Source of the DNA: Oscillospiraceae bacterium
Lineage (GTDB): Bacteria; Bacillota; Clostridia; Oscillospirales; Oscillospiraceae
Reading direction: 5' to 3'
Length of the DNA stretch: 57,450 bases
Assembly: GCA_017445875.1 (NCBI GenBank)
Contig: JAFSRZ010000022.1
Span: forward strand, 1 to 57,450
A model generated the notes under the pieces. That model did no database searches, had not been told where the DNA came from, and saw only the letters and a list, made by a program, of their open reading frames with translations. Positions 25,601-39,098 of this stretch are shown one piece after another (the first letter of the stretch is position 1; the number at the start of each line of letters is the position of its first letter). A program made the translations under genes and the position numbers.

Positions 25601-25625
25601 ACTCCCCCGCGCAACGCGGGGGAGT
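25601..25625. terminator. Terminator between converging kinase and ATPase genes
   Basis: Perfect 11-bp stem ACTCCCCCGCG / CGCGGGGGAGT with a CAA loop. T-rich flanks on both sides suit it to both strands. Confidence 0.75.
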
Positions 25626-25629
25626 TCGT

Positions 25630-26832
25630 TTATTGAAACTCCGGCGTGTTCTCGTCCTCCTCGTCGAAGCACTCACGCCCCAAAGCGGTAATTTGTGTTT
25701 TACCGGCCTGCCCGTACTGGTAGAGCTGGTCGAAAAACTCAATGGCACCGCGGATTTTCGTCCGCAACAGATAGCCTCCCGCCTCCGTGGCCTCGTAGAC
25801 AGTCTCCGGCGAGACATCAGGCCGCCAGTCGTAGGCGCGACCGTGGAAGTCCTGAATACTCCGAAGAATGCCCAGCGTTTCCGTTTTGTTCAGCGGCACC
25901 AGTTCCGGGGCGCTTAACATGGTTTGCAGGGTGGATTGCGCCGCCTGTAAGGCCTCCGCGTCGTCGCAAAAGGCGCTTTGCACATTGTCAAACTCGTGCT
26001 TTTTGTCAATGACATCCTCGGCAAAGGAGGAACTCAGGGCAAACAGAGAGAATACTTTTTCCATGCGGGCGGAGGGGTGTAAAAAGCGTTGCATTTCCCG
26101 GTAACTCTTGGCGCGGGCGCGTTTGCCCATGCGTCCGATAAGTTCCGCCTCGTCGAACAAAATGACCCAGCCCTCACAGCCCAGCACCCGGAACAGGTGA
26201 CTGATAAAAGCAAAATAATCCATACAGTGACGGCTTTTGCTGAAAGTCTGTTTGAATTTCGCGGGCGTGCCGGTAATGCGCCGGTAACTGCGCTTGATAA
26301 GCGCCCCGGAAACAAAATCCCCTTCCAAGTCCGCTAAAAACAGATTTCTCTCCTCATCGTTCTGCGTGTCCAGCAGAGCGCGCAGAAGATAGTACAGTTT
26401 ATCCGTTTCCAGTTCGTGGGCGGCGTAGGCCAGCAAATCCCCCGCCGCGTGACTGCCGGCGCTGAGTTCCTCCAGACGGGCGCGGAAACCGGGTTGTCCG
26501 GCGTTGGGCAGATACGTTCCTGCCATCAGTTTTGGGTAGAGTAACCACGGCTTGTCCACGGGCGTTTCCTTGCCCAGCGAAACAAACGAAACTGCCATAT
26601 TGGCGGCGAAAGCCATATTGAACGCCGTATTGAGTAAATGTGTTTTGCCCTCGCCGTAGCGGCCTGTGATTATCATGCCGTCAGAGTGACCGGTCTCCCG
26701 GACTGCGGTCAGGCGTTCCCGAAGTTTTTTCGTCAGCGCGGGGCGAGCCTCGGAGAAATATTCGCCCACCGTCCGGGAAGGTACCCCGGAGCGCAACGCC
26801 TCAATGACGTGCAGGGCGTTGAAATCAGACAT
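25630..26832 (-). CDS. BrxC/BrxD (DUF2791)-like P-loop ATPase, last gene of the ten-gene locus
   Basis: 400 residues. Walker A GRYGEGKTHLL (about 57-67) and Walker B GWVILFDEAELIGR (about 221-234) with an Arg/Lys-rich helix after it. The layout resembles the ATP-binding proteins of BREX (BrxD, DUF2791), which belong to the STAND/AAA-like P-loop NTPases. It starts 8 bases inside the gene upstream (ATG within the last codons, GGAGGGAGGCGG site), so the twin ATPases are co-translated. No BREX methylase PglX or phosphatase PglZ is nearby. Substrate unknown. Confidence 0.75.
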   Translation of the reverse strand: MSDFNALHVIEALRSGVPSRTVGEYFSEARPALTKKLRERLTAVRETGHSDGMIITGRYGEGKTHLLNTAFNMAFAANMAVSFVSLGKETPVDKPWLLYPKLMAGTYLPNAGQPGFRARLEELSAGSHAAGDLLAYAAHELETDKLYYLLRALLDTQNDEERNLFLADLEGDFVSGALIKRSYRRITGTPAKFKQTFSKSRHCMDYFAFISHLFRVLGCEGWVILFDEAELIGRMGKRARAKSYREMQRFLHPSARMEKVFSLFALSSSFAEDVIDKKHEFDNVQSAFCDDAEALQAAQSTLQTMLSAPELVPLNKTETLGILRSIQDFHGRAYDWRPDVSPETVYEATEAGGYLLRTKIRGAIEFFDQLYQYGQAGKTQITALGRECFDEEDENTPEFQ

Positions 26833-28045
26833 CCGCCTCGCCTCCCTCCAACATCGTGCGATTGATGAGATACGGCAAGCCCAGACTGCCGAAACGTGAA
26901 CGCTCTATCACACCGCGCACCGCTTCCGCATCCAAGGGTGCCGCGTCCACGCCAAGACGCCCTAACGCGTCGGACAGACGCCGGGACATGTTCAGCAATG
27001 TGGCCTCGTCGTAGGCCTCATCGGCGTAACGGTCCATGTCGATGATATCCGCGAAACGGTTAAAGCGTGTGCTGACCACCTCGTTTTGAATGCGAAGCCA
27101 TAGAGCCTGATAGGATTTCAAGCCGTAACTTTCATTGTCCATGAGTTCCCGGTCAAAGCACAGCAGAAAGAGAATATGCCGCATGCTGTCAATATCGTCG
27201 ATGAGCTGACGGATACTTTCGTAACTGTCCTCGCGGCGGAGCTTTGTATAGCGGCGCGGACTGTCGGCGGCGCGGTCGAGCAGGGTTTCCATGTCGTCAA
27301 TTGTGACCAAAAGTCCGGGACGACCGCTCAGCCGGACAATTTCCGTCAGGGAGCGCAACAAATACCGGGCATTATAGCGGGTGATTCCCGCCGGGGACAG
27401 TCCCAGCGCCCGCAATTGGGAGAGTTTCACGCTTTTGTCGCCCCGCAGATAGGCCAGCAACAGTTCCCGGTTGACCGGTTCCAGTACCGGGTGTCCCAAA
27501 ATTGCCCCGGTCAGCAGAGAACAGCAACCGGCAAAACAGTTATCCAGCAGGGGATTCCGGGTAAAGTAGCGCCGCAGGACTGTGCGAATTTCCCCTTTGG
27601 AGAGGGCGTCGCCCTCGCCCTGTTCCGTCAGATAGTCCATGAAGTTTCTGCCGTCCCCCACGACTGCCGGGTCATAGCCCATGTCCCGGATGATTTGCCG
27701 GGCGCAGTCGGAAAGAAGCGTCTCAAAGCCGCACTGACGGAAGATTTCCAGATACACTTCCCGAAAGTCATGGAGCCAGACTTCCCGCGCCGAAAAACTC
27801 ACGCATAGATAGCCCATGTTCTCCGCACGGTTCCGCAGACGGCGGGCAAGGTGGGTTTTCCCACTGCCGGGGCGTCCGGTGATAAACTTAATCTTACTCC
27901 CGCCGGAGGGAATGTAGTCTTCCAGATAGTGAAGCGTGATAAAGTCCTCCAAGGAATCCAGCCCCACATTGATTTCCGCCAGTGTTCCGTTGTCGACCGG
28001 GACTTTGCCCTGTCGCAATTGTTCCGCGTTGCTTGCGTAACTCAT
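26825..28045 (-). CDS. BrxC/BrxD (DUF2791)-like P-loop ATPase, first of the pair
   Basis: 406 residues. Walker A FITGRPGSGKTHLARRL (about 55-71), Walker B LLVTIDDMETLLD (about 245-257), then IRQLIDDIDSMRHILFLLCF with a sensor-like region. It resembles the following gene and BREX ATP-binding proteins, but the two are clearly diverged. The ATG at 28045 overlaps the upstream stop (TGATG) and has GAGG 7 bases before it; a GTG one codon earlier is possible. Likely a hetero-oligomeric partner of the downstream ATPase (inference). Confidence 0.75.
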   Translation of the reverse strand: MSYASNAEQLRQGKVPVDNGTLAEINVGLDSLEDFITLHYLEDYIPSGGSKIKFITGRPGSGKTHLARRLRNRAENMGYLCVSFSAREVWLHDFREVYLEIFRQCGFETLLSDCARQIIRDMGYDPAVVGDGRNFMDYLTEQGEGDALSKGEIRTVLRRYFTRNPLLDNCFAGCCSLLTGAILGHPVLEPVNRELLLAYLRGDKSVKLSQLRALGLSPAGITRYNARYLLRSLTEIVRLSGRPGLLVTIDDMETLLDRAADSPRRYTKLRREDSYESIRQLIDDIDSMRHILFLLCFDRELMDNESYGLKSYQALWLRIQNEVVSTRFNRFADIIDMDRYADEAYDEATLLNMSRRLSDALGRLGVDAAPLDAEAVRGVIERSRFGSLGLPYLINRTMLEGGEADV

Positions 28046-28836
28046 CACGTTTCCTCGCTCTGGAGCGGGCGCAGAGTGCTGATGAAAGATTCCACGCCGC
28101 TTCGACTCAAAACACGAATGCCGTTGCCCTCCCGACTGGTGCCGAATGTATAGCGCCGTCCGTCTTTCGTGACCCAGCTTTCCGGGCCTTTTTCGTACAG
28201 TCGGGCAAGGTCGAAGGCATAGGAGAGCATGTCATAGTCTTTTCTTGCTCGCGCCGTGGGCGCAAGGCATTTGTAGATTTTGCTCAACGCCTGTGCGCTT
28301 CCCTCACGGGCGTTAGCGCGCAGACACGCCACAGTATAAGCCTCCGCCAGTTCCCCCATGAATACGCTTTCCCGGAAGGGAGCGTCATAGAGGCGTTCCT
28401 GTTTCTGCCGGATAGTTTCCGCCACGTAGGCCGGACGGCAACTGGGCAGTTTTTTCTTGTCCAGATAGACTTCCCCGCGGCTTTCGCCGTCCGCCAGAAC
28501 GCGGAGTTTGAAGGGGAACATTTCATATACGCCCTTTTCCCCCTTGACATCAATGCCCTTTCCGGCGCAGGCCTCCAAAAGTTCCCGTGAAAACTCTCCG
28601 TCCGCGAGATAGGCACCGGCGTCAAAACTGTCCAGCGTTTCCCGCGCCCCGGCTATCCGTTGCCGTAACTGTTCCTGCGCGTCCTCCAGCGCGGTCAGAT
28701 TTTTGCGTAACTCGACCAGATTGCCCGTCTCGGTATTTTTAAGCGCGGCCTTTTGCAGTCTGGTCACTGCGCCGGCGCTGTCCCGGAGACCCTTTTCCCA
28801 CGGCTGCAACGCCTCGTATAATGTTTCATAGCCCAT
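28045..28836 (-). CDS. Unrecognised protein, helical N-terminus, third transcription unit gene
   Basis: 263 residues with no family I recognise. Residues 1-85 look like a long helical/coiled region (ALQPWEKGLRDSAG, LRKNLTALEDAQEQLRQRI). The rest is mixed, with GVYEMFPFKLRVLADGESRG and a charged C-terminus. No membrane segment, signal peptide or catalytic motif is visible. It starts after the internal promoter at 28889-28917 and is translationally coupled (TGATG) to the twin ATPases, so it probably works with them. The ribosome site (GGAAAGGCGG) is weak. Confidence 0.65.
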   Translation of the reverse strand: MGYETLYEALQPWEKGLRDSAGAVTRLQKAALKNTETGNLVELRKNLTALEDAQEQLRQRIAGARETLDSFDAGAYLADGEFSRELLEACAGKGIDVKGEKGVYEMFPFKLRVLADGESRGEVYLDKKKLPSCRPAYVAETIRQKQERLYDAPFRESVFMGELAEAYTVACLRANAREGSAQALSKIYKCLAPTARARKDYDMLSYAFDLARLYEKGPESWVTKDGRRYTFGTSREGNGIRVLSRSGVESFISTLRPLQSEET

Positions 28837-28888
28837 TGTGTTGTGTACCGCCTTTCCATAACGTTCCACAGAGTTGGATTTTGTGAAA

Positions 28889-28917
28889 ATTATAGCCCAT
28901 TTGACCGCCTCTGGCAA
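28889..28917 (-). promoter_or_regulatory. Internal promoter within the ten-gene locus
   Basis: Minus strand: -35 TTGCCA (28912-28917), 17-bp spacer, perfect -10 TATAAT (28889-28894). It lies in the only sizable gap (145 bases) of the locus and would drive the last three genes independently. Confidence 0.75.
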
Positions 28918-28981
28918 GAGTTTTCTTGCGACTATAAAGCGGACAAATTGCACATGAATTTGTTAAATTGACGAAAGCGGC

Positions 28982-29779
28982 TCACCCGCGTGAAATCTCC
29001 CGCATGACTTCCATCATGTCAAAGCCCTGTTCCAAAGCCGTTTCCGTCGCGGGGTTCGTCTCGCGGAGTAATTCGACAAGTACCGACAGCGCGTCATATT
29101 CCTCGCCGTCGCCGGGCGTATCGGGGAAAGGTTCCGGCACCACGACATTTCCCGCGCCGCTGGGCGTATCGGGGAAAGATTCCGGCACCACGACATTTCC
29201 CGCGCCGCTGGGCGTATCGGGGAAAGATTCCGGCACCACGACATTTCCCGCGCCGCCGCTGGGCGTATCGGGGAAAGATTCCGGCACCACGACATTTCCC
29301 GCGCCGCCGGGCGTATCGGGGAAAGATTCCGGCATCATAACATTTCCCGCGCTCTCCGGCATGCGGTACTCTGGAACTGTGTAGACATACAGCGGCTTTT
29401 CCCCCGACTTTCGCGGGAATACCTCCCGGAAATCCCCCGGTGACAGAATCTCCCCATTCACCGACCATTCCCCGGCACAAGCCCCTTGTGACATGGCCTC
29501 CTCCAACAGTCCACGGCTCCACGGACGCGGACAGCCCAAGTCCGGGAACATCCCGTGATAGTTCTCCCTATGGTAATCCGTGCAGAACAGCAGGCGGAAC
29601 GGTTCCCTGTCCGGGCTGGCTTGCAGGTCGTAGAGGACACGTTTCCACATCTCCCGCAAGGCCTCACGGGTCACGGCTTCCTCTGTTTCCAGTACGCGGA
29701 ACGGCTCCGAATCCGTCTCACGATACCGCACCTGACAGCGCCCGTCACGCTGAAAGACGACGATTGTACCGACATTCAT
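28982..29779 (-). CDS. Unrecognised protein with five 16-residue Pro/Ser repeats
   Basis: 265 residues. An N-terminal domain (1-145) has MNVGTIVVFQRDGRCQVRYRE as its start (given in two parts elsewhere) and a CTDYHRENYHGMFPD motif. Five near-identical units of about 16 residues (GAGNVVVPESFPDTPS type) follow, then an acidic-helical tail (SVLVELLRETNPATETAL). No fold recognised. The repeats look like a flexible or multivalent linker. The ATG at 29779 overlaps the preceding stop (TGATG) and follows AGGGGAA. It ends the first transcription unit. Confidence 0.65.
   Translation of the reverse strand: MNVGTIVVFQRDGRCQVRYRETDSEPFRVLETEEAVTREALREMWKRVLYDLQASPDREPFRLLFCTDYHRENYHGMFPDLGCPRPWSRGLLEEAMSQGACAGEWSVNGEILSPGDFREVFPRKSGEKPLYVYTVPEYRMPESAGNVMMPESFPDTPGGAGNVVVPESFPDTPSGGAGNVVVPESFPDTPSGAGNVVVPESFPDTPSGAGNVVVPEPFPDTPGDGEEYDALSVLVELLRETNPATETALEQGFDMMEVMREISRG
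29114..29356 (-). repeat. Five 48-bp in-frame minisatellite units
   Basis: Units begin at 29114, 29162, 29210, 29261 and 29309; one spacing is 51 bases because of an extra GCC codon. Near-identity at the DNA level implies recent expansion. Since 48 and 51 are multiples of three, copy-number change alters protein length without frameshift. Confidence 0.95.
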
Positions 29780-30546
29780 CACACATTCCCCTGTCCGGAC
29801 ATTTCGCGGCGGTAGGTCTCGATACACGCGTCAATCTGGTCGCGGAACACGTCAGCACCTACTTGTAACATCGCGTCCCGCAAAGCACCCTCCACGCATT
29901 CGCGTTCGTAGGGGTCATCGCGCAGTCCGCTGGAGAAAAAGTCGTTTAACAAGGTTCCGTCCGTCACGCCGTGTTCCCGAAGCGAGCGTATGAGCGTTTC
30001 CACGGAGAAAAATTTCCGCATTCCCGACTGTCTGACCGCGTTCCAGAACTCCGGGTTGAGCGTCACGCCGTACTTTTCCTCCAAGCCCCGCACGTACACG
30101 CCCGAACCCACCGACGCGTATTTCAGACGTTCCTTTTCGTCCATGGCCTCGAAAAATCCGGGTGCCTCGTCGGGGATATTCTCCCGGATATGCTTCAAAT
30201 ACTCCTCGGTAGAGTCGAAGTCCTCCGGTTCCATGTCCAGTTCCGCCGCACGTTCTATTTTGCGCCCTAACTGTTCGGCGGTTTCGCTTCCGGGAACGTC
30301 CCGCAAGAGAAGTCTGGCGACGGTGGGAATAATGTCCACCACGAGCGCCTGTAGGATTTCCCGTACAGCCTCCGGCGCGGGAATACGCGCTACCAGAGGC
30401 CGCAGTACCGGGGCGATATTGGCGATAAAACGCGTTACCCGTACCATTTCGGGACTCGAAAACGCCTGTGTAATATTCGCCGCCGCCGTGGTAATGCCCT
30501 CCAACAGTGCAAGTCCTGTCTCTTGAATGCCATCGAACAAAATCAT
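29779..30546 (-). CDS. Unrecognised helical protein of the ten-gene locus
   Basis: 255 residues with no family I recognise. The N-terminus is hydrophobic and helical (ILFDGIQETGLALLEGITTA, then RFIANIAPVLRPLVARIPAP and ALVVDIIPTVARLLL). It is amphipathic rather than clearly transmembrane, so peripheral membrane contact is possible. The C-terminal half is charged (MRKFFSVETLIRSLREHG). The start overlaps the HerA-like gene's stop (ATGA) and its end overlaps the repeat-protein start, so it is tightly coupled to both. Confidence 0.65.
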   Translation of the reverse strand: MILFDGIQETGLALLEGITTAAANITQAFSSPEMVRVTRFIANIAPVLRPLVARIPAPEAVREILQALVVDIIPTVARLLLRDVPGSETAEQLGRKIERAAELDMEPEDFDSTEEYLKHIRENIPDEAPGFFEAMDEKERLKYASVGSGVYVRGLEEKYGVTLNPEFWNAVRQSGMRKFFSVETLIRSLREHGVTDGTLLNDFFSSGLRDDPYERECVEGALRDAMLQVGADVFRDQIDACIETYRREMSGQGNV

Positions 30547-33335
30547 ACAAAGTCCGCTCCTTCCCCGTCGTGTATGACTGTCTGCATAAATTTCCGGGCT
30601 TTCCGCTCCCTTGCCTGCTCCTGATTGTCAACTTTGCGCCCGTCCGCCCGGATATGCCGACAAATCCAGTCCGTGACCGCGTTTTCGTCCACGACACCGC
30701 GCCGGATGAGTTCGCGCAACAGTCCGCGCTCTCCGGCGGTTCGCTCCATCCACTGCGCCCGCTTCAAGGTCGGGTTGGAATCCCGCTTGCACTGCCGGAA
30801 TCCCTCGTAGAGTGTCACAGGACCGTTTCGACACGCGAAAGCAAACGCTTCCTCCCGCGTTTCCGGCGACAGGCTTTCCAGCGACAGCGGCAAAAGTACC
30901 CCGCGCCCGTTATGTCCGTTGCCGTAATAGTAGTCGACGGCACGGCGGCGGAGTTCGCGCTTCTCGACATAGTTACTGGACGTGTCCGCCGCCGCCAAAA
31001 CTTTCACCTGCACGGCCTGTTCGTACTCCCCCGCGTAGAGAACCGCGTAGCCTATCCGCAGACTGGACAGGAAACGCTTCTGGTCGTCGCTCAGGGCAAT
31101 GGCGTTGCCGATTGCGTCCTTGTCGTCCTGCGCAAAGACGCGGTGGACAATCTTGGTGTTGGTGTTCTTGAGTACATCGTCGGCGAGCTTGTTCGGAATC
31201 TGGTCGGCAATCATCATACATACGCCGTACTTGCGGATTTCGGCGAGCATGTCCGTGAAAATTTCCACGCCCTGTTTTTTCGTGGGGGCGTCGCCGGGCT
31301 GGTACTTGCTAAGCAGTCTGTGCGCCTCCTCCAGAAGCAGAATACGCCCTTCCCGCTTCCCGGTTCTCTCGTAGCGCAGTCGAACCGCCTCCTGATAGCG
31401 GGCCATTATCAGCCCCATCAAAAATGACTTTTGCGCCCCGCTTCGGACGTTTTCCAGTTCCAAAATGACATTCCTGTCAAGCAGTTCCATGAACTCCACG
31501 GACTTCTGACAGTCGAGCATGCGCCCCCGTGCGCCTAAGAGCAGACTTTGCAGACGGGCGCGGATAGAGCCTATGTAGTCACGTTTGAGACGGTCATCGA
31601 ATCCCTGTTCCTCGACTTCCTTGTCCACACGCGCCAGAAGGTCGGAGAGTGTCGGGAAAATTCCCTGTGACGCGCCGCCGGGGGGTTCGCTCCGGTCAAT
31701 GTCCCAACCCTTTTCGCGGTAGCAGTTATAAAGCGCGCTTTCGAGCAGTTGCGGAATGGCGGCTTCCATGTCGAAGGCGGCTTCCAGACTTGCCCGGAAA
31801 ATGTCCACGTGAGAACTGATACTTTCTCCCGGCAGAAGTTCAAAGGGATTGAAGCGGAACGGTGCGCCGCTTTCGTCGCCCAATGTAAAGACTATCGCGT
31901 TTTCCATGGTACGGTACTCGGTTTTTGCCGGCTCAATGACCCAGAAGGGAAGTCCGCTCCGCTTTATCAACGCCTGACAAGTCGTGGTCTTGCCGCTTCC
32001 CGTCACGCCGGAAATGAAAACGTGTCTGTCCAGCGCACGCTTGGACAGTGACACCGGCGTGTCCGTCCCGCTCCCGTCCTTGACAAGATACCCTATCGGC
32101 AGACGGTCTCCGTCCGGCATGGCGTTGCGTAAGCGCCGTTCACTTTCACGGCGTTCGTCCTCGCTCATGTTTTTGCGTCCGCTCTCGCGTACGCCCTCCG
32201 GCACCGTCAGCCCGAACGCGACTTCCTCGCGTACGGTCAACCCTTGCACTTCCTTGCGCGGAAGTCCCGCTATCATCGACAGTTCCTTTGTCGTCATCCA
32301 ATTGCTCATGGGGAACCATTCGCCGGGGCGCACCTGTTGCGACAGCAACGCCCGCGACAATATTTCCGGCGTCGAAACCCGGCTTTGCAGACGGATTTCG
32401 GGTATTTGCAGATTCTGGATTGTCTCCCGCTCCTCTTGGGATACCGATACCGCCCGCAATGGCACGCGGTTTTCCTCCCGCCCGGAATACAACGCCAATA
32501 CCGTGTTTTCCAGTCTGCGTTGACTGGTCGGGGTCTCGGACATGACATAAAACGCCGTGTGGAACGCCCCCTTGCCGCGTCCGTAGTCCAGCCGCCCCGC
32601 AATGACTTTGTCCATGTACTCCGCCCACTGTTGGGCAAGTTTGTTAGGGGCTTCCCATGAAAGTGATTCGCTCTCGTCACGGTGTCCGGACGGTTCGGAA
32701 CCTCCGTGCCGCCCGCGGCTTAACTGCTTGCCGCTCCGCATAACCGGCGCGAGTGTCTCATAAGCGGCGTGTAACCGGCGTTCCGCCTCGGATAGTTCCC
32801 CGGTCTCCATGGCGCTGGCAATCACCAGCGCGCCGAACTCACTGCCCTGCATGACATCCGTCAGGCGGTCGACACTCTGGAAACGTTCGTCCTCCTTGAC
32901 ACTCCCCGGTACCCCCTCCATGCGCGTAATGTAACGGAATTTCCGCAGACGTTCCAATACCCGTTGATTCTGTACGGGTTCCAGTCTCCGAATGTCGCTG
33001 CCCCGGTAGTTCCCCGTCAGACTGGCTTGTAAAAGTTTCGTCCCCAGTTCGGGGATGATAATTTCCGTCTCGCGCTGACCGCGCCGCGACAGGCCGTAAT
33101 AAAAATGTACGCCCAGTCTATCGCCCAGCAGTAAATACAGAAAGTTCACGCCGGGAACGCGTACCGCGCTGAGTACAATTTCCAGCGCTTCCTTCCACGG
33201 TGCCTCCTTCTCGTAGGTGATTTTCTTGACCTCGAAAAACACCCTGTCCCGTTTCAGCAACTCCTCCGGCTTTCGGAAACCCGCGTCCATGTTGGACAGA
33301 CTGTAACGTTCCGGGTCACGCAGAAGCTCTAACAT
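30543..33335 (-). CDS. HerA/VirB4-like (DUF87) P-loop ATPase
   Basis: 930 residues from the first ATG. An N-terminal part of about 420 residues lacks obvious motifs. The ATPase core has Walker A FISGVTGSGKTTTCQAL (about 441-457), an IEPAKTEYR loop, Walker B GRILLLEEAHRLL (about 663-675) and the ADQIPNKLADDVLKNTNTKI region with conserved Asn/Lys, as in HerA/FtsK-type hexameric pumps. Such ATPases translocate DNA or protein. The ATG at 33335 has no ribosome site; the frame is open and coding-like back to an ATA at 33392 (IKLLDFERDHEEQ...) preceded by AAAGGGGGAG, so the true start may be a rare AUA or CUG. Confidence 0.85.
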   Translation of the reverse strand: MLELLRDPERYSLSNMDAGFRKPEELLKRDRVFFEVKKITYEKEAPWKEALEIVLSAVRVPGVNFLYLLLGDRLGVHFYYGLSRRGQRETEIIIPELGTKLLQASLTGNYRGSDIRRLEPVQNQRVLERLRKFRYITRMEGVPGSVKEDERFQSVDRLTDVMQGSEFGALVIASAMETGELSEAERRLHAAYETLAPVMRSGKQLSRGRHGGSEPSGHRDESESLSWEAPNKLAQQWAEYMDKVIAGRLDYGRGKGAFHTAFYVMSETPTSQRRLENTVLALYSGREENRVPLRAVSVSQEERETIQNLQIPEIRLQSRVSTPEILSRALLSQQVRPGEWFPMSNWMTTKELSMIAGLPRKEVQGLTVREEVAFGLTVPEGVRESGRKNMSEDERRESERRLRNAMPDGDRLPIGYLVKDGSGTDTPVSLSKRALDRHVFISGVTGSGKTTTCQALIKRSGLPFWVIEPAKTEYRTMENAIVFTLGDESGAPFRFNPFELLPGESISSHVDIFRASLEAAFDMEAAIPQLLESALYNCYREKGWDIDRSEPPGGASQGIFPTLSDLLARVDKEVEEQGFDDRLKRDYIGSIRARLQSLLLGARGRMLDCQKSVEFMELLDRNVILELENVRSGAQKSFLMGLIMARYQEAVRLRYERTGKREGRILLLEEAHRLLSKYQPGDAPTKKQGVEIFTDMLAEIRKYGVCMMIADQIPNKLADDVLKNTNTKIVHRVFAQDDKDAIGNAIALSDDQKRFLSSLRIGYAVLYAGEYEQAVQVKVLAAADTSSNYVEKRELRRRAVDYYYGNGHNGRGVLLPLSLESLSPETREEAFAFACRNGPVTLYEGFRQCKRDSNPTLKRAQWMERTAGERGLLRELIRRGVVDENAVTDWICRHIRADGRKVDNQEQARERKARKFMQTVIHDGEGADFV

Positions 33336-33413
33336 TTCTGTGGCGTCCCGTGCCTGTTCCTCGTGGTCTCTCTCGAAATCTAACAGCTTTATATCGGTCT
33401 CCCCCTTTCCACG

Positions 33414-36400
33414 TCATTCCAGCCGTATCGCCCCGGAATGCCACTCGTATTCGCCGCGCTCCGCCGCCTCCAGACTTTCCGCCACCGCGCACTCGATTTC
33501 GTCCGGGCTGACAGGCCGTAGATAAATATGCCAAGCCTCGTTGACGTACCCGCACGGAATCAGTATCTGCCGTGCGCGTGTCTCCCAGACCGACACGCCG
33601 CTTTGGGGCTTGTCCGCCTGATACGTCCCCGCCGCCGGAGAGTCCGTGTAGAAGAACGAAAAATCCTCCTCCCCGGCGTCCCAGTATTCGACCCACTGCC
33701 CGTACCCGCTCCGGGGCGTCAGCAACGGACATAAACAGTCCCAGTCGTCGCTCTCGCCCACCCAGAAGCGGAACCGTATTTCCTCCTGTGTCCGGGTTTT
33801 GTCGATGGCCTTGATATTGCTCCCGCTCCGGGTCAGAAGCAGTCCCAGCGCGACGCCGGTTTTACCCGTGCAGTTTTGCGGCTCGCTGTCGGGCGCGCCG
33901 TCCTCCCGGATACGGCGTTCGGCCTCCTCCGAACCCAGCGGCGCGAATATCTCAAAGAATGTGTCGGGCGGGTCGCCCCTGTGATGTTCGCCCCAAATCC
34001 CGCGCATAGCCCGGTTAAGTTCGTCAATCCGTGCGTGGATACACTCACGGAAAATTTCGGATTTCGCGGAGTTCCCCGCAAGGAAAATATCCATCACCGG
34101 CGAATTGCCCTGCCCGTTCCCCGTCCACTGCAACGCGAACGCCTTCACCATGCCCACAAACTGTGTCACGCCCTCCTCAATCCGGCCGCGAATCAGTTCA
34201 AGCAGTTTCGGGACAGAGACGTTTATCTGTACATGTTTTTGTGCGCCGTCCTCGTTGAACAGCGGGATTTTCGCCGCGCCCGATACGTCGATGTCGTAGC
34301 CGCCGCCCGCGCCGCCTTCCGTATAATAACCGTTTTCCGCGTCGCCTTTCAAGTTCCCCTCCCACACCGGGCGGAGCAGTTCCGACAACGTGCGAATGTT
34401 GACCTGTGCTTCCAGCGTATTGTCAATCAGGAACTCGAAACCGGGTTCCGGCGTCAGCCACGGCGGACAGGTGAATTGAATCCCTTCTTTGCGGAGTGTG
34501 CCGGCGTTGTCGCGGAAAGTCTGACAGGCCATTTCCCAGAGCAGATTTTCCCCGCCGAGATGTTGCGAACCGCCGTAGGAAAGGTGTTCGATGACGTACC
34601 GGACACCGCGCCGCCGTTCGTTGTTCTCCGGCCTGCGCCATATGCCGAGGTCGAAATCAGACGTGCCGCCGCCGAAGTCGAATACCGCGAAGCGTACCGG
34701 TGCGCCCGGCTCCGGCTTCACGCCGAACTTTTTCAGCGCACACACCGCGTAGGCCGCCGGTTCCGCCGCGCCCTCCCGGACGTAGAAAGAATCCATACAT
34801 TCCCTGTCGTCCAGAATACTTTGAGGCAGCGACTTTTTCAAGCCCGCTTCAAAACTTTCGAGAATTTTCCGCCGCGCCGCTTTCGAGTAGGACACCGGGA
34901 ACGATAACAAATACTTCAAATATATTTTGCCCGTGCGCATGTTGTTAATATACAGGCCGATATAATAGGCGTAAAAGGCAATGGGATTCAGTCCGGGCGG
35001 CGTCTCCTCCTCCATGCCGACCGCGTAACAGACTTCGGAGTTTTCCGCGTCCTCCTCCGATTCCAGAAAAGGCCGTAATTCTTTGGGCGGCTTCTTTTCG
35101 TCGATGGCGCGGCGGTCCATGATGTGAACGCTTTTGCGCGAACCGCTCGCCCATTGTTTCAGTTCCCCGAAAAACGACGGCAGATAAACCGGGCCGTCCG
35201 TCGCGCTTAACTCGTTGCGGGCGTTCAAAGCCGTGTGGGATGTGTTCACGTCCTCCCAACGGGTCATAGGGCGTCCGGCGCGGGCGTGGAAGTCCGTTAA
35301 AAAGCGGTCTAAGTCGATAAATTGCAAAATAGTCGGGTTTTCGTACTGCTTCCGGCTTAACTCGCTTCTGTAGTCCCCAGTCCCGACACGAACCAAGTCA
35401 AGTTTCCCGTTGGTCATGCGGGCGACTACCGTACTTTTTGTGCCGAAGTCAATACCGATAATGTCATTCCACGCCACATCAAGTTTTGGCGGACGGGCGT
35501 AGACCGGCGTTTCCAGCCGGACAGTTTCGCCGTCGGAATTGTCCCGGATACGCTCCCACAGTTCCCATAAGCCGCCGTTCGGATTCTCCAACTTGCGCCG
35601 GTTCTCCGGGGTGATGTCCGCCCGGACAAAATCCGCCCGCAACAACTCCGTAATGGCGGCTTGACTTTTGTCGGGGACAACCGGCGCGGAATCCTCCGGG
35701 ATATTCAGCACTTCGTCGGCGATACTGCCAAGCGCCGCTTGTAATTCCTCGCCTTTCAGGTTTTGCAAGGCCTTTGTCACCACGATTTCCTGATTTTCCA
35801 CGTTCAGGAAACCGCGCTCTATCATCCGGTAAAGCGACTGCAAGTCCGCTTTTTGCTTTTCGTCCATGCCGGACGGTATCATAGCGTTGCGGAGTACGTA
35901 CCACATCATGGGCTCCGAAAGATGAATTACATGCGCTACGATAGTCTGACAGGCTCCGCCGGAATATTCATAGCAAAAATGACTTGAGTTATAACGGTTA
36001 TCTTCAAGAACCGCGATTCCCTTACTTCCGTTAGAGCCGAACAGGTTCTTGAGATAGGGAATTTTCTTCCGTTCCTCCTTGGACAGGCTGTCCAAAATTT
36101 GTTTCGCCTCCGTGAACGTGGGAAGAGTAAGAGTGGGATTGCGGAAAGCGGGAAATTTCACATCTCCGCGGCCACGGGCAAAGGGACTGGAACTTCCATC
36201 CTTCCAGTCAAGCCGAATAGCCAGCTTGTCGCTGAAAATATTCTCCATCAAAACACCGCGCAGACCGCCCGGAATCCAGACATCATAATTGTCAAAAAAG
36301 ACATTGCCCGTCTGCAAAGTGTTGTACAACGCCCCTAAAACCTCCGACAGCTTTTCCTTTAACTTCCGCTCGTCGAATACGCCGTCCGTCACGGGAGGCG

Positions 36401-36467
36401 CGGGGCGTTCCGGTTTGTCCGCGCCCGCGGGTATCTCGTACACGGCCTTGACTTTGATATCGTTCAT
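33414..36467 (-). CDS. Large Hsp70/actin-fold ATPase
   Basis: 1017 residues. Residues 1-330 are a non-canonical N-terminal region. The actin/Hsp70 fold follows, with phosphate-1 IIGIDFGTKSTVVARM (about 337-352), phosphate-2 FAVFDFGGGTSDFDLG (about 593-608) and adenosine motif MDIFLAGNSAKSEIF (about 792-806). A C-terminal domain of about 110 residues lacks the usual substrate-binding beta-sandwich signature. Probably an ATP-switched assembly or chaperone-like protein. The ATG overlaps the coiled-coil gene stop (ATGA) with a CAGGGGGGAA site. It is the largest and most distinctive member of the locus. Confidence 0.85.
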   Translation of the reverse strand: MNDIKVKAVYEIPAGADKPERPAPPVTDGVFDERKLKEKLSEVLGALYNTLQTGNVFFDNYDVWIPGGLRGVLMENIFSDKLAIRLDWKDGSSSPFARGRGDVKFPAFRNPTLTLPTFTEAKQILDSLSKEERKKIPYLKNLFGSNGSKGIAVLEDNRYNSSHFCYEYSGGACQTIVAHVIHLSEPMMWYVLRNAMIPSGMDEKQKADLQSLYRMIERGFLNVENQEIVVTKALQNLKGEELQAALGSIADEVLNIPEDSAPVVPDKSQAAITELLRADFVRADITPENRRKLENPNGGLWELWERIRDNSDGETVRLETPVYARPPKLDVAWNDIIGIDFGTKSTVVARMTNGKLDLVRVGTGDYRSELSRKQYENPTILQFIDLDRFLTDFHARAGRPMTRWEDVNTSHTALNARNELSATDGPVYLPSFFGELKQWASGSRKSVHIMDRRAIDEKKPPKELRPFLESEEDAENSEVCYAVGMEEETPPGLNPIAFYAYYIGLYINNMRTGKIYLKYLLSFPVSYSKAARRKILESFEAGLKKSLPQSILDDRECMDSFYVREGAAEPAAYAVCALKKFGVKPEPGAPVRFAVFDFGGGTSDFDLGIWRRPENNERRRGVRYVIEHLSYGGSQHLGGENLLWEMACQTFRDNAGTLRKEGIQFTCPPWLTPEPGFEFLIDNTLEAQVNIRTLSELLRPVWEGNLKGDAENGYYTEGGAGGGYDIDVSGAAKIPLFNEDGAQKHVQINVSVPKLLELIRGRIEEGVTQFVGMVKAFALQWTGNGQGNSPVMDIFLAGNSAKSEIFRECIHARIDELNRAMRGIWGEHHRGDPPDTFFEIFAPLGSEEAERRIREDGAPDSEPQNCTGKTGVALGLLLTRSGSNIKAIDKTRTQEEIRFRFWVGESDDWDCLCPLLTPRSGYGQWVEYWDAGEEDFSFFYTDSPAAGTYQADKPQSGVSVWETRARQILIPCGYVNEAWHIYLRPVSPDEIECAVAESLEAAERGEYEWHSGAIRLE

Positions 36468-37291
36468 GACGACATTCCCCCCTGTTCGCCGACTGTGACC
36501 ACACATTTCCGCGCCGCTTTCTTCTCCTTGCGGTTCCATATCCCCGGCAAAAGGACTTTGGCGACGTTCCCCGAATGCTGACTGCCGCCCTTTGCGCGTA
36601 TATGCCGTTCCCCGTCGAAACGGTCTCCGGCGCGGTCGTCCATCCATTCCCAAACCGGCGCGTACATCGTGGAATTGTACTGTTTCAGCAAAAAGCGCAG
36701 TACGTCCAGCAGAACCGCCCATTCGGGACTGTCCGTCATGCCCGGACACTCGCAAGCGTTCCGCATTTTCTCCCACAAGGACGTAATCGCGTTGGCACTC
36801 CCCCCGCACAGCAGAAAACGCGTCGGCGTGTCCGTGGGGAGAATCTCCCGCCATTCGCTGTCCGCCTTGACCAGTTCCAGTGTACGGTAACGGTCGTAGA
36901 TATCCAGCAGTTCCGAGAAGGGTTCGAGTTTCGCTCCCAAGGCGGCGTTGTCGCGTTCCAGCGCGTTGTACTGTGCTTGCAAGTCGGCGTTGTCGGCGTT
37001 CAGTTCGCCAAAGCGCTTTTGCAAGTCGGCCTTTGCGGCGGTCAGTTCTGTGACTTGTTCTTGCAAAGCGTCGTTGTCAGCAGTCAGTCTACTGACTTCT
37101 TTTTCCAGTTCCGCTACTTTGCCGTTGTCGGGAGAAGGCGCGGGAAACGCTTGATAGTTTGAGCGCGTTTTCTTAAGCTCTGTTACCTCATTTGCAAGCG
37201 TTGTCACAAGCCCTGCCAGTTTTTTGTGTTGCTCTTCAAGGTCTGCTACTCTACGCTGAAAAGCCGTCCACTCATTTGGATTAACAACCAT
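36464..37291 (-). CDS. Coiled-coil protein, probable partner of the Hsp70-like ATPase
   Basis: 275 residues. Residues about 10-45 and 57-125 are strong heptad coiled coil (VAELEKEVSRLTADNDALQ and related). A globular C-terminal domain (SELLDIYDRYRTLELVK... LLKQYNSTMYAPVWEWM) with a basic end follows. It starts inside the patatin gene (11-base overlap, GAGGAGAAA site) and overlaps the Hsp70-like start by 4 bases. By position and shape it could be a nucleotide-exchange or scaffold partner, but no GrpE motif is visible; that role is inference. Confidence 0.7.
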   Translation of the reverse strand: MVVNPNEWTAFQRRVADLEEQHKKLAGLVTTLANEVTELKKTRSNYQAFPAPSPDNGKVAELEKEVSRLTADNDALQEQVTELTAAKADLQKRFGELNADNADLQAQYNALERDNAALGAKLEPFSELLDIYDRYRTLELVKADSEWREILPTDTPTRFLLCGGSANAITSLWEKMRNACECPGMTDSPEWAVLLDVLRFLLKQYNSTMYAPVWEWMDDRAGDRFDGERHIRAKGGSQHSGNVAKVLLPGIWNRKEKKAARKCVVTVGEQGGMSS

Positions 37292-38450
37292 AAAATTTCT
37301 CCTCATTGTGCGCGTCAAAGCCCTCCAAGACGCGCAAAGCGTCCTCGTAACCGTGCCGGACACGTTCACGGGTAATTTCCGGGGTCAGTTCAAACACCGC
37401 CAAGAAATCGTCGTCGAACCCGGAACCGGGACGCACTACCCGAAATTCACACAGTTCGGTACTATCCCCGGACGGTATACGCCACGGACGCCCCTGTTTC
37501 CGTTTCAGGTCTACAACGATAAATTTTCGGAATCCCTCCCGATAGAGCGGGAAAATCGGAACATTGTCGTAAAAGCCGCCGTCGTAATAGGCTTTGCCCC
37601 GGAATGTCACCGGGTCGTAGGCCGGGGGAATCGCCGACGAGGCCATAAGTAACCGCGTCATGTCCATATTGGACAGGCCGCGCCACGAAATATAGTGGGC
37701 GGTTTCGTCGGAGATTGCGCCGGGGAAAGACGGCGTTTCCGGGTCGAGCAGTCCCGGCAGGAGAAACGGAACTTCCTCCAGCGGCGTGACAGCGGAGTAC
37801 AGCGCGAACTCCCGGAATGTGTCGGGGCTGATGGACTTGATGACGGGCAGTAAATGCCGTTCAAGTTCGGGCTGGGAGATGAAAATGTCCTCCATGATTT
37901 CCAGCAGTTCCGGCGGGAGTATACTTTGTCCGTGCCGCCGCCCGTAGGCGCGGGTAATGCGTTCGATTTCGGCGCGCTGGACGCGGCGGAAATCCGGGTC
38001 ACTGAGCTGTAACCAGAGTTCGTAAGCCTCGCGCCAGTCGCCGCGCAGAAATAACGGCGTGTTAATCGCCCCGATGGACACGCCCGAAATACCGGTCACT
38101 TGCGCGGCAAGTCCGCTTTCGCACAAAGCCCGCCAGACGCCTACCTGATAGGCTCCTTTCGCGCCGCCGCCCGCCAATACAAGCCCGATTCCCGTCCGGG
38201 GCTGTTGGGTCAGGAACGTTTTCAGCGCGAAGTACAACGCGCTTTCCGTGTCGCAAATCTGTTCACCGTCGCGGACATTGCGCACTCTCGCGCTATGGGA
38301 CGCCTCGTCAGTCTCGATGAACCAGTCCCCGCACGTCACCCGCGCCCGCCAGTGTCCGGCGTCCGGCACCGGCGACCAGTGCCCGTAAGCCTTCACAAAT
38401 TCCGCTAAGGCGCGTGGGGTTATCCGTTTTGATATCCTGTTCCAGTTCAT
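37281..38450 (-). CDS. Patatin-like phospholipase
   Basis: 389 residues. After an 85-residue N-terminal extension comes the patatin domain: oxyanion motif AGGGAKGAYQVG (about 93-104), nucleophile elbow GISGVSIGAIN (GVSIG, Ser about 125) and the catalytic Asp in YYDGGFYDN (Asp about 290). The Ser/Asp dyad is intact, so lipid acyl hydrolysis is expected. Patatins serve as membrane-attacking effectors in some defence systems (e.g. CapV in CBASS) but also in normal lipid turnover. It lies second in the locus, 9 bases after the DUF697-like gene. Confidence 0.9.
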   Translation of the reverse strand: MNWNRISKRITPRALAEFVKAYGHWSPVPDAGHWRARVTCGDWFIETDEASHSARVRNVRDGEQICDTESALYFALKTFLTQQPRTGIGLVLAGGGAKGAYQVGVWRALCESGLAAQVTGISGVSIGAINTPLFLRGDWREAYELWLQLSDPDFRRVQRAEIERITRAYGRRHGQSILPPELLEIMEDIFISQPELERHLLPVIKSISPDTFREFALYSAVTPLEEVPFLLPGLLDPETPSFPGAISDETAHYISWRGLSNMDMTRLLMASSAIPPAYDPVTFRGKAYYDGGFYDNVPIFPLYREGFRKFIVVDLKRKQGRPWRIPSGDSTELCEFRVVRPGSGFDDDFLAVFELTPEITRERVRHGYEDALRVLEGFDAHNEEKFYGC

Positions 38451-38459
38451 AGCGTTTCC

Positions 38460-39098
38460 CTATTCAAAGCGAATCTTGAACGGCGGCGCGGGGTTCGACT
38501 CCGGTTCCGGCGGCGTTGCCGCTTCCGGCTCCGACTGAAACCCGCTTTCCGGTTCCGATGGCGCTGCCGGTTCCGGCTCCGACTGAAACCCGGTTTCCGG
38601 TTCCGGCGCGGGAGAAATCCCGGTTTCTTGCTCCTCCTGTTTCTGACGCTCATTTTTGACCAGCACTTTGAAATCGTCAATAAGGTCGTCAATCGGCGGG
38701 ATGTCGTCGCCACGCCCGGCTATGCCGGATAAGAGCTTGATATAGGCTTCTCCCATAACCAATGTGAGGGTTCCCGCCGTGGTCGCGGAGACAGCGCCTC
38801 CGGCGAACGTACCCGCAAACGGTATCACTTTCAGTACGGAGGAAACCACCGTTTTTCCGATGAACGCCGCCCCGCTGACGTTCAACGCCGCGTAAACCAA
38901 GGAAGTCAAGGCGCTTTTTTTCAGGTCAAAGCCGAATACGGCGGTAATACCGCCCAGCATGGCGACCTGTTCCCCGATTAACGGAATCATATCGACAATG
39001 GGCAGAGGGATTCCGCCTGTCACCGCGGCGGCGGCTGTGGTGGCTCCGACAATTGCGTGTGCTTTGACCTGTTTTTCCTGCAAGGAACTCTCCGACAT
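38460..39098 (-). CDS. DUF697-like membrane protein, first gene of the ten-gene locus
   Basis: 212 residues. Residues 12-130 resemble the DUF697 helical hydrophobic domain (TGGIPLPIVDMIPLIGEQVA, then AFIGKTVVSSVLKVIPFAG and LTLVMGEAYIKLL), with Gly/Ala-rich helices able to enter the membrane. The C-terminal 60 residues are a Pro/Glu/Ser-rich repetitive tail (EPESGFQSEPEAA repeats). DUF697 domains accompany some membrane-acting GTPases; no GTPase is present here. The ATG at 39098 follows AAAGGAG. It may dock the complex at the membrane (inference). Confidence 0.7.
   Translation of the reverse strand: MSESSLQEKQVKAHAIVGATTAAAAVTGGIPLPIVDMIPLIGEQVAMLGGITAVFGFDLKKSALTSLVYAALNVSGAAFIGKTVVSSVLKVIPFAGTFAGGAVSATTAGTLTLVMGEAYIKLLSGIAGRGDDIPPIDDLIDDFKVLVKNERQKQEEQETGISPAPEPETGFQSEPEPAAPSEPESGFQSEPEAATPPEPESNPAPPFKIRFE

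What the first reader, a model, noticed from the sequence alone, without database searches (positions are those of the whole stretch)
25630..39098. Ten-gene locus joining Hsp70-fold, HerA-type and twin BREX-like ATPases with a patatin lipase
Seen: ten same-strand genes over 13.5 kb with seven start/stop overlaps, a promoter at the head and another before the last three genes. Four members are ATPases of three different classes (actin/Hsp70 fold, HerA/DUF87, two DUF2791-like P-loops), one is a lipase with an intact Ser/Asp dyad, one a DUF697-like membrane protein, one a coiled coil and three are unrecognised. Known: patatins and BrxC/D- or HerA-like ATPases each occur in antiphage systems. Inference: one machine that senses or assembles through the ATPases and attacks or remodels membrane through the patatin. 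No set of named systems I know (BREX, DISARM, Zorya, Wadjet, Lamassu, CBASS) has this composition.
Basis: partly seen in the sequence, partly recalled or inferred. Interest (0 to 1): 0.88.

Follow-up and report, generated by a model that had tools for sequence, protein, structure and literature searches.

The report
Chaperone-gated HerA membrane-attack locus
Seven of these ten genes hold a core (an Hsp70-like protein, a HerA-family ATPase and a small protein) that recurs together in distant bacteria and likely works as an anti-virus device predicted to attack the membrane, while the last three genes are a separate operon that stands alone in other genomes.

Summary
The ten genes are real, but they are two modules rather than one machine. 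Module A (29.0-39.1 kb): DUF697, patatin, coiled coil, Hsp70-like (g4), HerA (g5), g6, g7. Its g4-g5-g6 core recurs across several phyla: HerA and/or G6 lie beside g4 homologues in 26 of 77 loci, HerA is followed directly by G6 in all 22 loci where G6 is seen, and divergences of the three proteins correlate (r 0.75-0.83; 0 of 5000 permutations). The seven-gene order recurs in a second species of the genus. Module B (g8-g9-g10, twin BrxD-like ATPases) has its own promoter-like site (11/12), stands without g4-g6 in 13 fetched loci, is absent from the fetched stretches of 85 g4 loci, and is not next to module A in the second species. Best reading (function inferred): an abortive-type defence in which the Hsp70-like protein gates a HerA platform releasing membrane-active effectors (G6; patatin/DUF697 here; dynamin-like GTPases in some relatives). 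I found no named system with this core in Pfam, PADLOC, NCBIfam or open-access papers searched. No functional data exist; I put this reading at about 50%.

The parts
38460..39098 (-). g1, DUF697 protein (212 aa, inferred membrane-associated), module A accessory
   Evidence: Pfam PF05128 4.4e-10; ortholog at the same place in G009/L082
37281..38450 (-). g2, patatin phospholipase with an 85-aa N-terminal extension; oxyanion GGGAKG, Ser GVSIG and Asp DGG intact; module A accessory, inferred effector
   Evidence: Pfam PF01734 1.9e-30; motifs; extension found in 9 of 120 listed homologues, the query's own protein included
36464..37291 (-). g3, coiled-coil protein, common partner of g4
   Evidence: coiled-coil matches; BLAST cluster of 38 proteins in 37 of 79 loci (coiled coils can match unspecifically)
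33414..36467 (-). g4, Hsp70-like ATPase (1017 aa): about 330-aa unknown N-terminal region, Hsp70 nucleotide-binding domain and a beta-rich C-terminal part
   Evidence: 1014 homologues; model and fold matches; conserved phosphate loops
30543..33335 (-). g5, HerA/DUF87-family ATPase (930 aa)
   Evidence: Walker A 443, LLEEAH 667; alignment A4
29779..30546 (-). g6, core small protein, predicted all-helical; hydrophobic, low-charge N-terminus in the family (inferred membrane-active)
   Evidence: homologues in 22 of the 79 loci scanned; composition; model pLDDT 79 with no PDB match at E 0.001
28982..29782 (-). g7, unknown; last gene of module A; carries about five 16-residue repeats
   Evidence: ortholog in L082 (50% over 160 aligned columns) and in L029
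28889..28917 (-). sigma-70-like promoter TTGCCA-17-TATAAT at the module boundary
   Evidence: 11 of 12 matches, best of the region; the region gave 10 sites against 5.5 +/- 2.2 in shuffles
28045..28836 (-). g8, unknown; module B
   Evidence: found next to the BrxD-like pair in 12 of 13 fetched loci
26825..28048 (-). g9, BrxD-like ATPase 1; module B
   Evidence: PF10923 4.9e-30; 1434 homologues
25630..26832 (-). g10, BrxD-like ATPase 2; module B
   Evidence: PF10923 4.1e-19; hits in 27 of 398 phylum genomes
25601..25625 (.). terminator-like 11-bp hairpin after g10, reported on both strands

Best explanation
The locus joins two modules: a recurring core of Hsp70-like (g4), HerA-family (g5) and G6 genes with DUF697, patatin, coiled-coil and g7 partners, which likely acts as an abortive-type anti-phage device, and a separate three-gene BrxD-like operon (g8-g10). 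Shown: the two-module make-up, the clustering and correlated divergence of g4, g5 and g6, and intact catalytic motifs. Inferred: g5 assembles into a HerA ring that serves as a platform; g4, with the coiled coil, uses ATP to hold the complex off or to release it when an invader is sensed; release frees the membrane-active parts. In the core that part is predicted to be G6, whose family has a hydrophobic, Gly/Ala/Ser-rich, low-charge N-terminus. In this genus patatin (lipid hydrolysis) and DUF697 (membrane anchoring) would add to it, as dynamin-like GTPases may in some relatives. g8-g10 is most likely an independent passenger with its own promoter.
For: Core: HerA and/or G6 beside g4 homologues in 26 of 77 genome-scan loci, with HerA followed directly by G6 in 22 of 22 loci where G6 is seen. 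In 398 phylum genomes g4 is strong in 6 and g5 (over 800 bits) in 4; three genomes carry both, adjacent. Distance correlations over 24 loci: g4-g5 0.83, g4-g6 0.77, g5-g6 0.75, none reached in 5000 permutations. The HerA-linked state lies on both deep sides of the midpoint-rooted g4 tree. Module A order is kept in a second species, g4 at 63% identity. Membrane theme: G6 N-termini, patatin motifs, dynamin-like genes in 7 of 86 loci, 5 of them with HerA/G6. Defence theme: 2 of 25 genus genomes; a plasmid copy with HEPN, dynamin and integrase genes; Wadjet JetC, LmuB-like and type I restriction-type genes near four core loci; a different neighbourhood in the second species. Two modules.
Against: No functional data. 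The defence-neighbour scan had no control and covered 103 of 187 flanking ORFs; of ten neighbours scanned one by one, 7 had no defence match, and several neighbours are housekeeping genes. g4 also lives without HerA: 47 of 77 loci have neither HerA/G6 nor VgrG-type genes (many on short contigs, but 14 have 8.8 kb or more on each side), so g4 may have a general chaperone role. g4 was not found in phage records or viral contigs, and only 2 plasmid records carry it. The window's own g6 N-terminus is less extreme (22% G/A/S, 18% charged in 90 residues). Patatin lies within 1 kb of g4 in only 1 of 86 fetched loci. The correlations could partly reflect shared host ancestry, and the tree holds two g4 copies from some loci.
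Confidence: 0.5

Rival explanations
1. All ten genes form one machine: the twin BrxD-like ATPases sense or load, and HerA and the Hsp70-like protein drive the patatin.
For: Same strand with little spacing. Both genus genomes found with module A (2 of 25 searched) also carry module B or part of it, while g9 hits only 2 of 61 genus genomes, one weakly.
Against: Module B stands without g4-g6 in 13 fetched loci. No BrxD-like gene is in the fetched stretches of 86 loci, 85 of them with g4, and PF10923 is in one genome of 23 with the core, the second species itself. There the gene after g7 is a dehydrogenase. Promoter-like site at the boundary. Contig-length coincidences between g4 and g9 hits are few (1 against 0.35 expected).
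Confidence: 0.12
2. Module A is a protein or DNA transfer or interbacterial-competition apparatus: HerA as a translocase, the Hsp70-like protein and coiled coil as loading chaperones, and the patatin as cargo.
For: In 6 of 86 loci the g4 homologue sits beside Hcp-like, VgrG-like and about 730-aa genes, in L145 also PAAR-like/AHH and Imm11 genes. g5 scores 3.8e-25 with the DNA-transfer ATPase CedD model, and the patatin 5e-8 with the Dot/Icm effector VpdC model.
Against: The VgrG-type loci never carry HerA/G6 (0 of 77 have both) and fall in one 15-row group of the 94-row g4 tree. No secretion channel was seen among the ten genes. Both NCBIfam matches are far below the family cut-offs.
Confidence: 0.2
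3. Module A is a membrane-stress or envelope-maintenance system with no role in conflict.
For: DUF697 and dynamin-like neighbours; solitary g4 copies beside housekeeping genes; many hosts are gut or rumen bacteria by record title.
Against: Patchy presence (2 of 25 genus genomes; 6 of 398 in the phylum), different neighbourhoods in two related species, and a plasmid copy.
Confidence: 0.15

Closest known systems
HerA-effector defence complexes (DUF4297-HerA, PMC11291478, abstract and passages; Sir2-HerA, recalled)
   Same: A HerA/DUF87 ATPase encoded beside an effector; a HerA ring that acts as a platform is the model for the inferred mechanism
   Different: No nuclease or Sir2 domain found among the ten; an Hsp70-like ATPase and G6 are added; the inferred effectors are membrane-directed
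HerA/FtsK capture systems and BREX-Related Capture systems (PMC10853773, PMC12839542; passages read)
   Same: HerA found near Orc/Cdc6-like ATPases of the BrxC/D kind
   Different: Here the BrxD-like pair is a separable operon; no PglZ, DUF4007, TGT or nuclease domain found among the ten; neither main text holds the words Hsp70 or patatin
CoCoNuT type III (CnuD Hsp70-like) and GTPase-centric HSP70 conflict systems (PMC11090510, PMC7159879; passages read)
   Same: An Hsp70-like ATPase recruited into a conflict system; coiled coils in CoCoNuTs
   Different: No McrB or other GTPase, DUF2357 or tubulin domain found among the ten; CnuD is described there as a very poor ATP hydrolyser at best, whereas the g4 loops are conserved
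BREX BrxD and Shango SngB
   Same: g9 and g10 match the BrxD and SngB models; one module B copy lies beside BrxL
   Different: Scores are far below the NCBIfam cut-off (90 and 42 bits against 350); no other BREX or Shango part found among the ten

Membership tests
BREX | PglZ, BrxA/BrxB and a methyltransferase or equivalent beside the BrxC/D ATPase | tested here: not met
   None found among the ten proteins by Pfam, PADLOC or NCBIfam; only PF10923/BrxD models match
BREX | BrxD equivalog score above the NCBIfam cut-off (350 bits) | tested here: not met
   90.3 and 42.1 bits
Shango | SngB ATPase together with SngA and the SngC helicase (parts recalled) | tested here: not met
   SngB matches at 1.9e-13 and 1.7e-7; no SngA or SngC hit among the ten
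MADS | several mad1-8 components together | tested here: not met
   Among the ten, only a mad8 match at 3e-18 on g5 and a weak one on g9 (5e-4)
HerA-effector defence (DUF4297-HerA / Sir2-HerA) | HerA/DUF87 ATPase | tested here: met
   DUF87 1.2e-6, PADLOC HerA 1.1e-17, Walker A and LLEEAH present
HerA-effector defence (DUF4297-HerA / Sir2-HerA) | partner nuclease (DUF4297) or Sir2 effector in the operon | tested here: not met
   No such domain found among the ten
Hsp70 superfamily | Hsp70 nucleotide-binding fold with conserved phosphate loops | tested here: met
Hsp70 superfamily | chaperone activity with DnaJ/GrpE partners | not testable with these tools
   needs biochemistry
CoCoNuT | McrB-like GTPase and DUF2357 protein | tested here: not met
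   Not found among the ten
CBASS | CD-NTase beside the patatin effector | tested here: not met
   None found among the ten; CBASS lipase model 8.5e-4 on g2, far below cut-off

The most novel reading that the evidence does not exclude
A new class of bacterial immune system: an Hsp70-family ATPase acts as the safety catch of a HerA ring that stores a membrane-perforating protein (G6), to which different lineages bolt further membrane weapons (patatin and DUF697 here, dynamin-like GTPases elsewhere); the same Hsp70/coiled-coil switch was also recruited into VgrG/Hcp toxin-delivery loci.
Probability: 0.3. Interest if true: 0.87.

Novelty: new variant of a known kind. Interest (0 to 1): 0.62.

Why it matters
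The finding turns one odd locus into a recurring module that can be tested. The g4 family has over a thousand relatives across several phyla and, in the 22 members scanned, no Pfam family shared by more than one; its g5-g6 partners diverge in step with it. If it is defence, it would show a chaperone ATPase gating a membrane attack, a mechanism not described in the HerA papers I could read, and it would add two new families (g4, G6) for defence-finding tools. It also shows that a ten-gene run with overlapping ends can be two modules side by side.

Tried and rejected
One ten-gene machine: tested and demoted (see rivals). Hsp70-like gene as phage-borne: no match in 50,697 phage records or, with two peptide patterns, in viral contigs. 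Solved relatives by sequence: none for the g4 alignment (E up to 0.1) or g9. G6 fold: no PDB match at E 0.001 or better; the first 50 or so residues of that model are low confidence. VIA for g4 covers residues 332-1015, so its N-terminal region is untested. The BrxD-like pair in other g4 loci: none in the fetched stretches; PF10923 in 1 of 23 genomes with the core. Patatin near other g4 loci: L079 has one 6.6 kb away, taken as unrelated. Toxin-immunity reading of locus L016: its two neighbours are pyruvate-ferredoxin oxidoreductase genes. RNA elements: none at Rfam gathering scores in the window. Clean empty site: not obtained, because the two flanking genes of the window lie on different contigs in G003, G009 and G019. 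Full-text searches listed no paper that I recognised as describing the core; I saw listings for all and passages of five papers; subscription papers and preprints are mostly not in that library. Defence neighbours: scanned without a control set.
Full report
WHAT IS THERE. The ten genes are open frames on the minus strand, 25630-39098. With the starts I prefer, six of nine junctions overlap by 4-11 nt; the others leave 9, 78 and 145 nt. The 145-nt gap lies between g7 and g8 and holds the best promoter-like site of the region (TTGCCA-17-TATAAT, 11 of 12; the region gave 10 sites against 5.5 +/- 2.2 in shuffles). No such site was found at the head of the locus. A strong hairpin follows g10. No tRNA and no Rfam element at gathering score is in the window.

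MODULE A IS A RECURRING UNIT. g4 has 1014 homologues at E 0.001 or better among the candidates scored. HerA and/or G6 lie beside g4 in 26 of 77; in the 22 loci where G6 is seen, HerA comes directly before it. In an even draw of 398 genomes of the phylum, g4 is strong in 6 (a seventh hit has 23 bits) and g5 above 800 bits in 4; three genomes have both, adjacent, and the fourth g5 has G6 beside it at the end of its contig. Four more genomes carry a weaker g5 relative (394-500 bits) without g4 or G6 in the fetched stretch. Over 24 loci the pairwise distances of g4, g5 and g6 correlate at 0.75-0.83, none reached in 5000 permutations; shared host ancestry could contribute. On the g4 tree (94 rows, up to two per locus) the HerA-linked state sits on both sides of the midpoint root and needs fewer changes than any of 500 shuffles (18 against a mean of 30.9), which suggests an old link with repeated losses (quick tree, SH-aLRT support only; near-copies help such clustering).

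ACCESSORIES. In a second species of the genus (G009) the order DUF697-patatin-coil-g4-g5-g6-g7 is kept, g4 at 63% identity. Further out, the patatin can be followed only indirectly: three of the ten best non-self patatins share an exact longest-contig length with a g4 hit (12227, 10117, 10532), against 0.026 expected from jittered lengths; a fourth coincidence among the remaining patatins is within chance. Nine of the 120 listed patatins, the query's own protein included, share the N-terminal extension. Among 86 fetched loci, patatin is within 1 kb of g4 only in G009. Elsewhere a dynamin-like GTPase lies nearby (7 of 86 loci, 5 of them with HerA/G6), or a MoxR-vWA pair (L033), or a PIN-kinase protein (L057). 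G6 proteins begin with a hydrophobic stretch: the first 70 residues are 27-53% Gly/Ala/Ser and 1-23% charged, the rest 15-27% and 26-41%, in 22 full-length members (one 188-aa second copy left out); 18 of 22 have a 19-residue window above 1.6 on the Kyte-Doolittle scale. The window's g6 is milder (22% and 18% in its first 90 residues; peak 1.65).

MODULE B IS SEPARATE. g10 homologues occur in 27 of 398 phylum genomes, and none but the window's own genome is also among the six with strong g4. In 13 fetched loci g9-g10 stand together, with g8 in 12 of 13, and no g4, g5 or g6 in the stretch; one pair lies next to BrxL. No BrxD-like gene is in the fetched stretches of 86 loci, 85 of them with g4, and PF10923 is in 1 of 23 core-bearing genomes, namely G009. 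In G009 the gene after g7 is a short-chain dehydrogenase (PF13561 6.7e-49) and no significant trace of g8-g10 is on the 20 kb searched of that 27-kb contig; g10 (86% identity) opens another contig. Against full independence: both genus genomes found with module A (2 of 25) also have module B or part of it, while g9 hits only 2 of 61 genus genomes, one weakly.

MOBILITY AND DEFENCE CONTEXT. Within the genus g4 is in 2 of 25 genomes. The window's two flanking genes are 92-96% identical in G003, G009 and G019 but lie on separate contigs there, away from the cluster; in G009 the cluster sits between a dehydrogenase gene and methyltransferase/Hsp33 genes. So the place differs, though no clean empty site was found. 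A plasmid copy in Acinetobacter piscicola has WYL, HEPN, dynamin, integrase and HipA genes around it. Near core loci there are Wadjet JetC (L004), LmuB-like (L006) and type I restriction-type genes (L056, L076). The alignment-based scan covered 103 of 187 flanking ORFs and had no control; of ten neighbours scanned one by one, 7 had no defence match, and other neighbours are housekeeping genes. It is suggestive only. No phage record or viral contig gave a g4 relative.

MECHANISM. DUF4297-HerA shows that a HerA ring can be nearly inactive alone and switch on when it assembles with its effector (PMC11291478, abstract and passages). By analogy I infer that g5 is the platform, that g4 with the coiled coil sets the threshold by ATP-driven binding and release, and that G6, helped here by patatin and DUF697, damages the membrane of the infected cell. 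The platform, switch and effector roles are untested. Evidence against: 47 of 77 g4 loci show neither HerA/G6 nor VgrG-type genes, and six loci pair g4 with VgrG/Hcp-type genes, which suits a wider chaperone role.

KNOWN OR NEW. The closest kinds are HerA-effector complexes, HerA/FtsK capture systems and BREX-Related Capture, CoCoNuT CnuD and GTPase-centric HSP70 systems. I read passages of PMC12839542, PMC11090510, PMC7159879, PMC10853773 and PMC11291478; none of those passages describes g4-g5-g6. Ten full-text searches listed no paper I recognised as describing it; that library lacks most subscription papers. I rate it a new variant of HerA-based systems, with a real chance of being a new class.

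Noticed in passing
L035, L038, L058, L059, L145, L146: g4 homologues, some with a coiled-coil gene detected, sit beside Hcp-like, VgrG-like (Phage_base_V) and about 730-aa genes; in L145 also PAAR-like DUF4280/AHH and Imm11 genes. These toxin-delivery-type loci fall in one 15-row group of the g4 tree and never carry HerA/G6.
   Followed up: partly
L013, L026, L050, L057, L080, L147: Tandem pairs of g4 paralogues that are each other's closest relatives on the tree, suggesting repeated independent duplication.
   Followed up: no
L139:1155-4459: A BrxD-like pair directly followed by a BrxL gene on a 7.4-kb contig; the other frames of that contig were not identified.
   Followed up: no
window 28982-29782: g7 carries about five 16-residue repeats (GAGNVVVPESFPDTPS-like); only residues 2-156 align with the G009 ortholog.
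   Followed up: no
L082:10447-11586: The DUF697 protein of the second species is 379 aa, with about 170 extra N-terminal residues without a Pfam match.
   Followed up: no
L040:4697-6619 and L011:5303-8443: Flagellar hook-length (FliK-like) matches in genes next to or near g4 homologues in loci without HerA.
   Followed up: no
L154-L157: More distant HerA relatives without g4 or G6 in the fetched stretch, three of them with a 681-751-aa gene on the same strand nearby; possibly a related HerA system.
   Followed up: no
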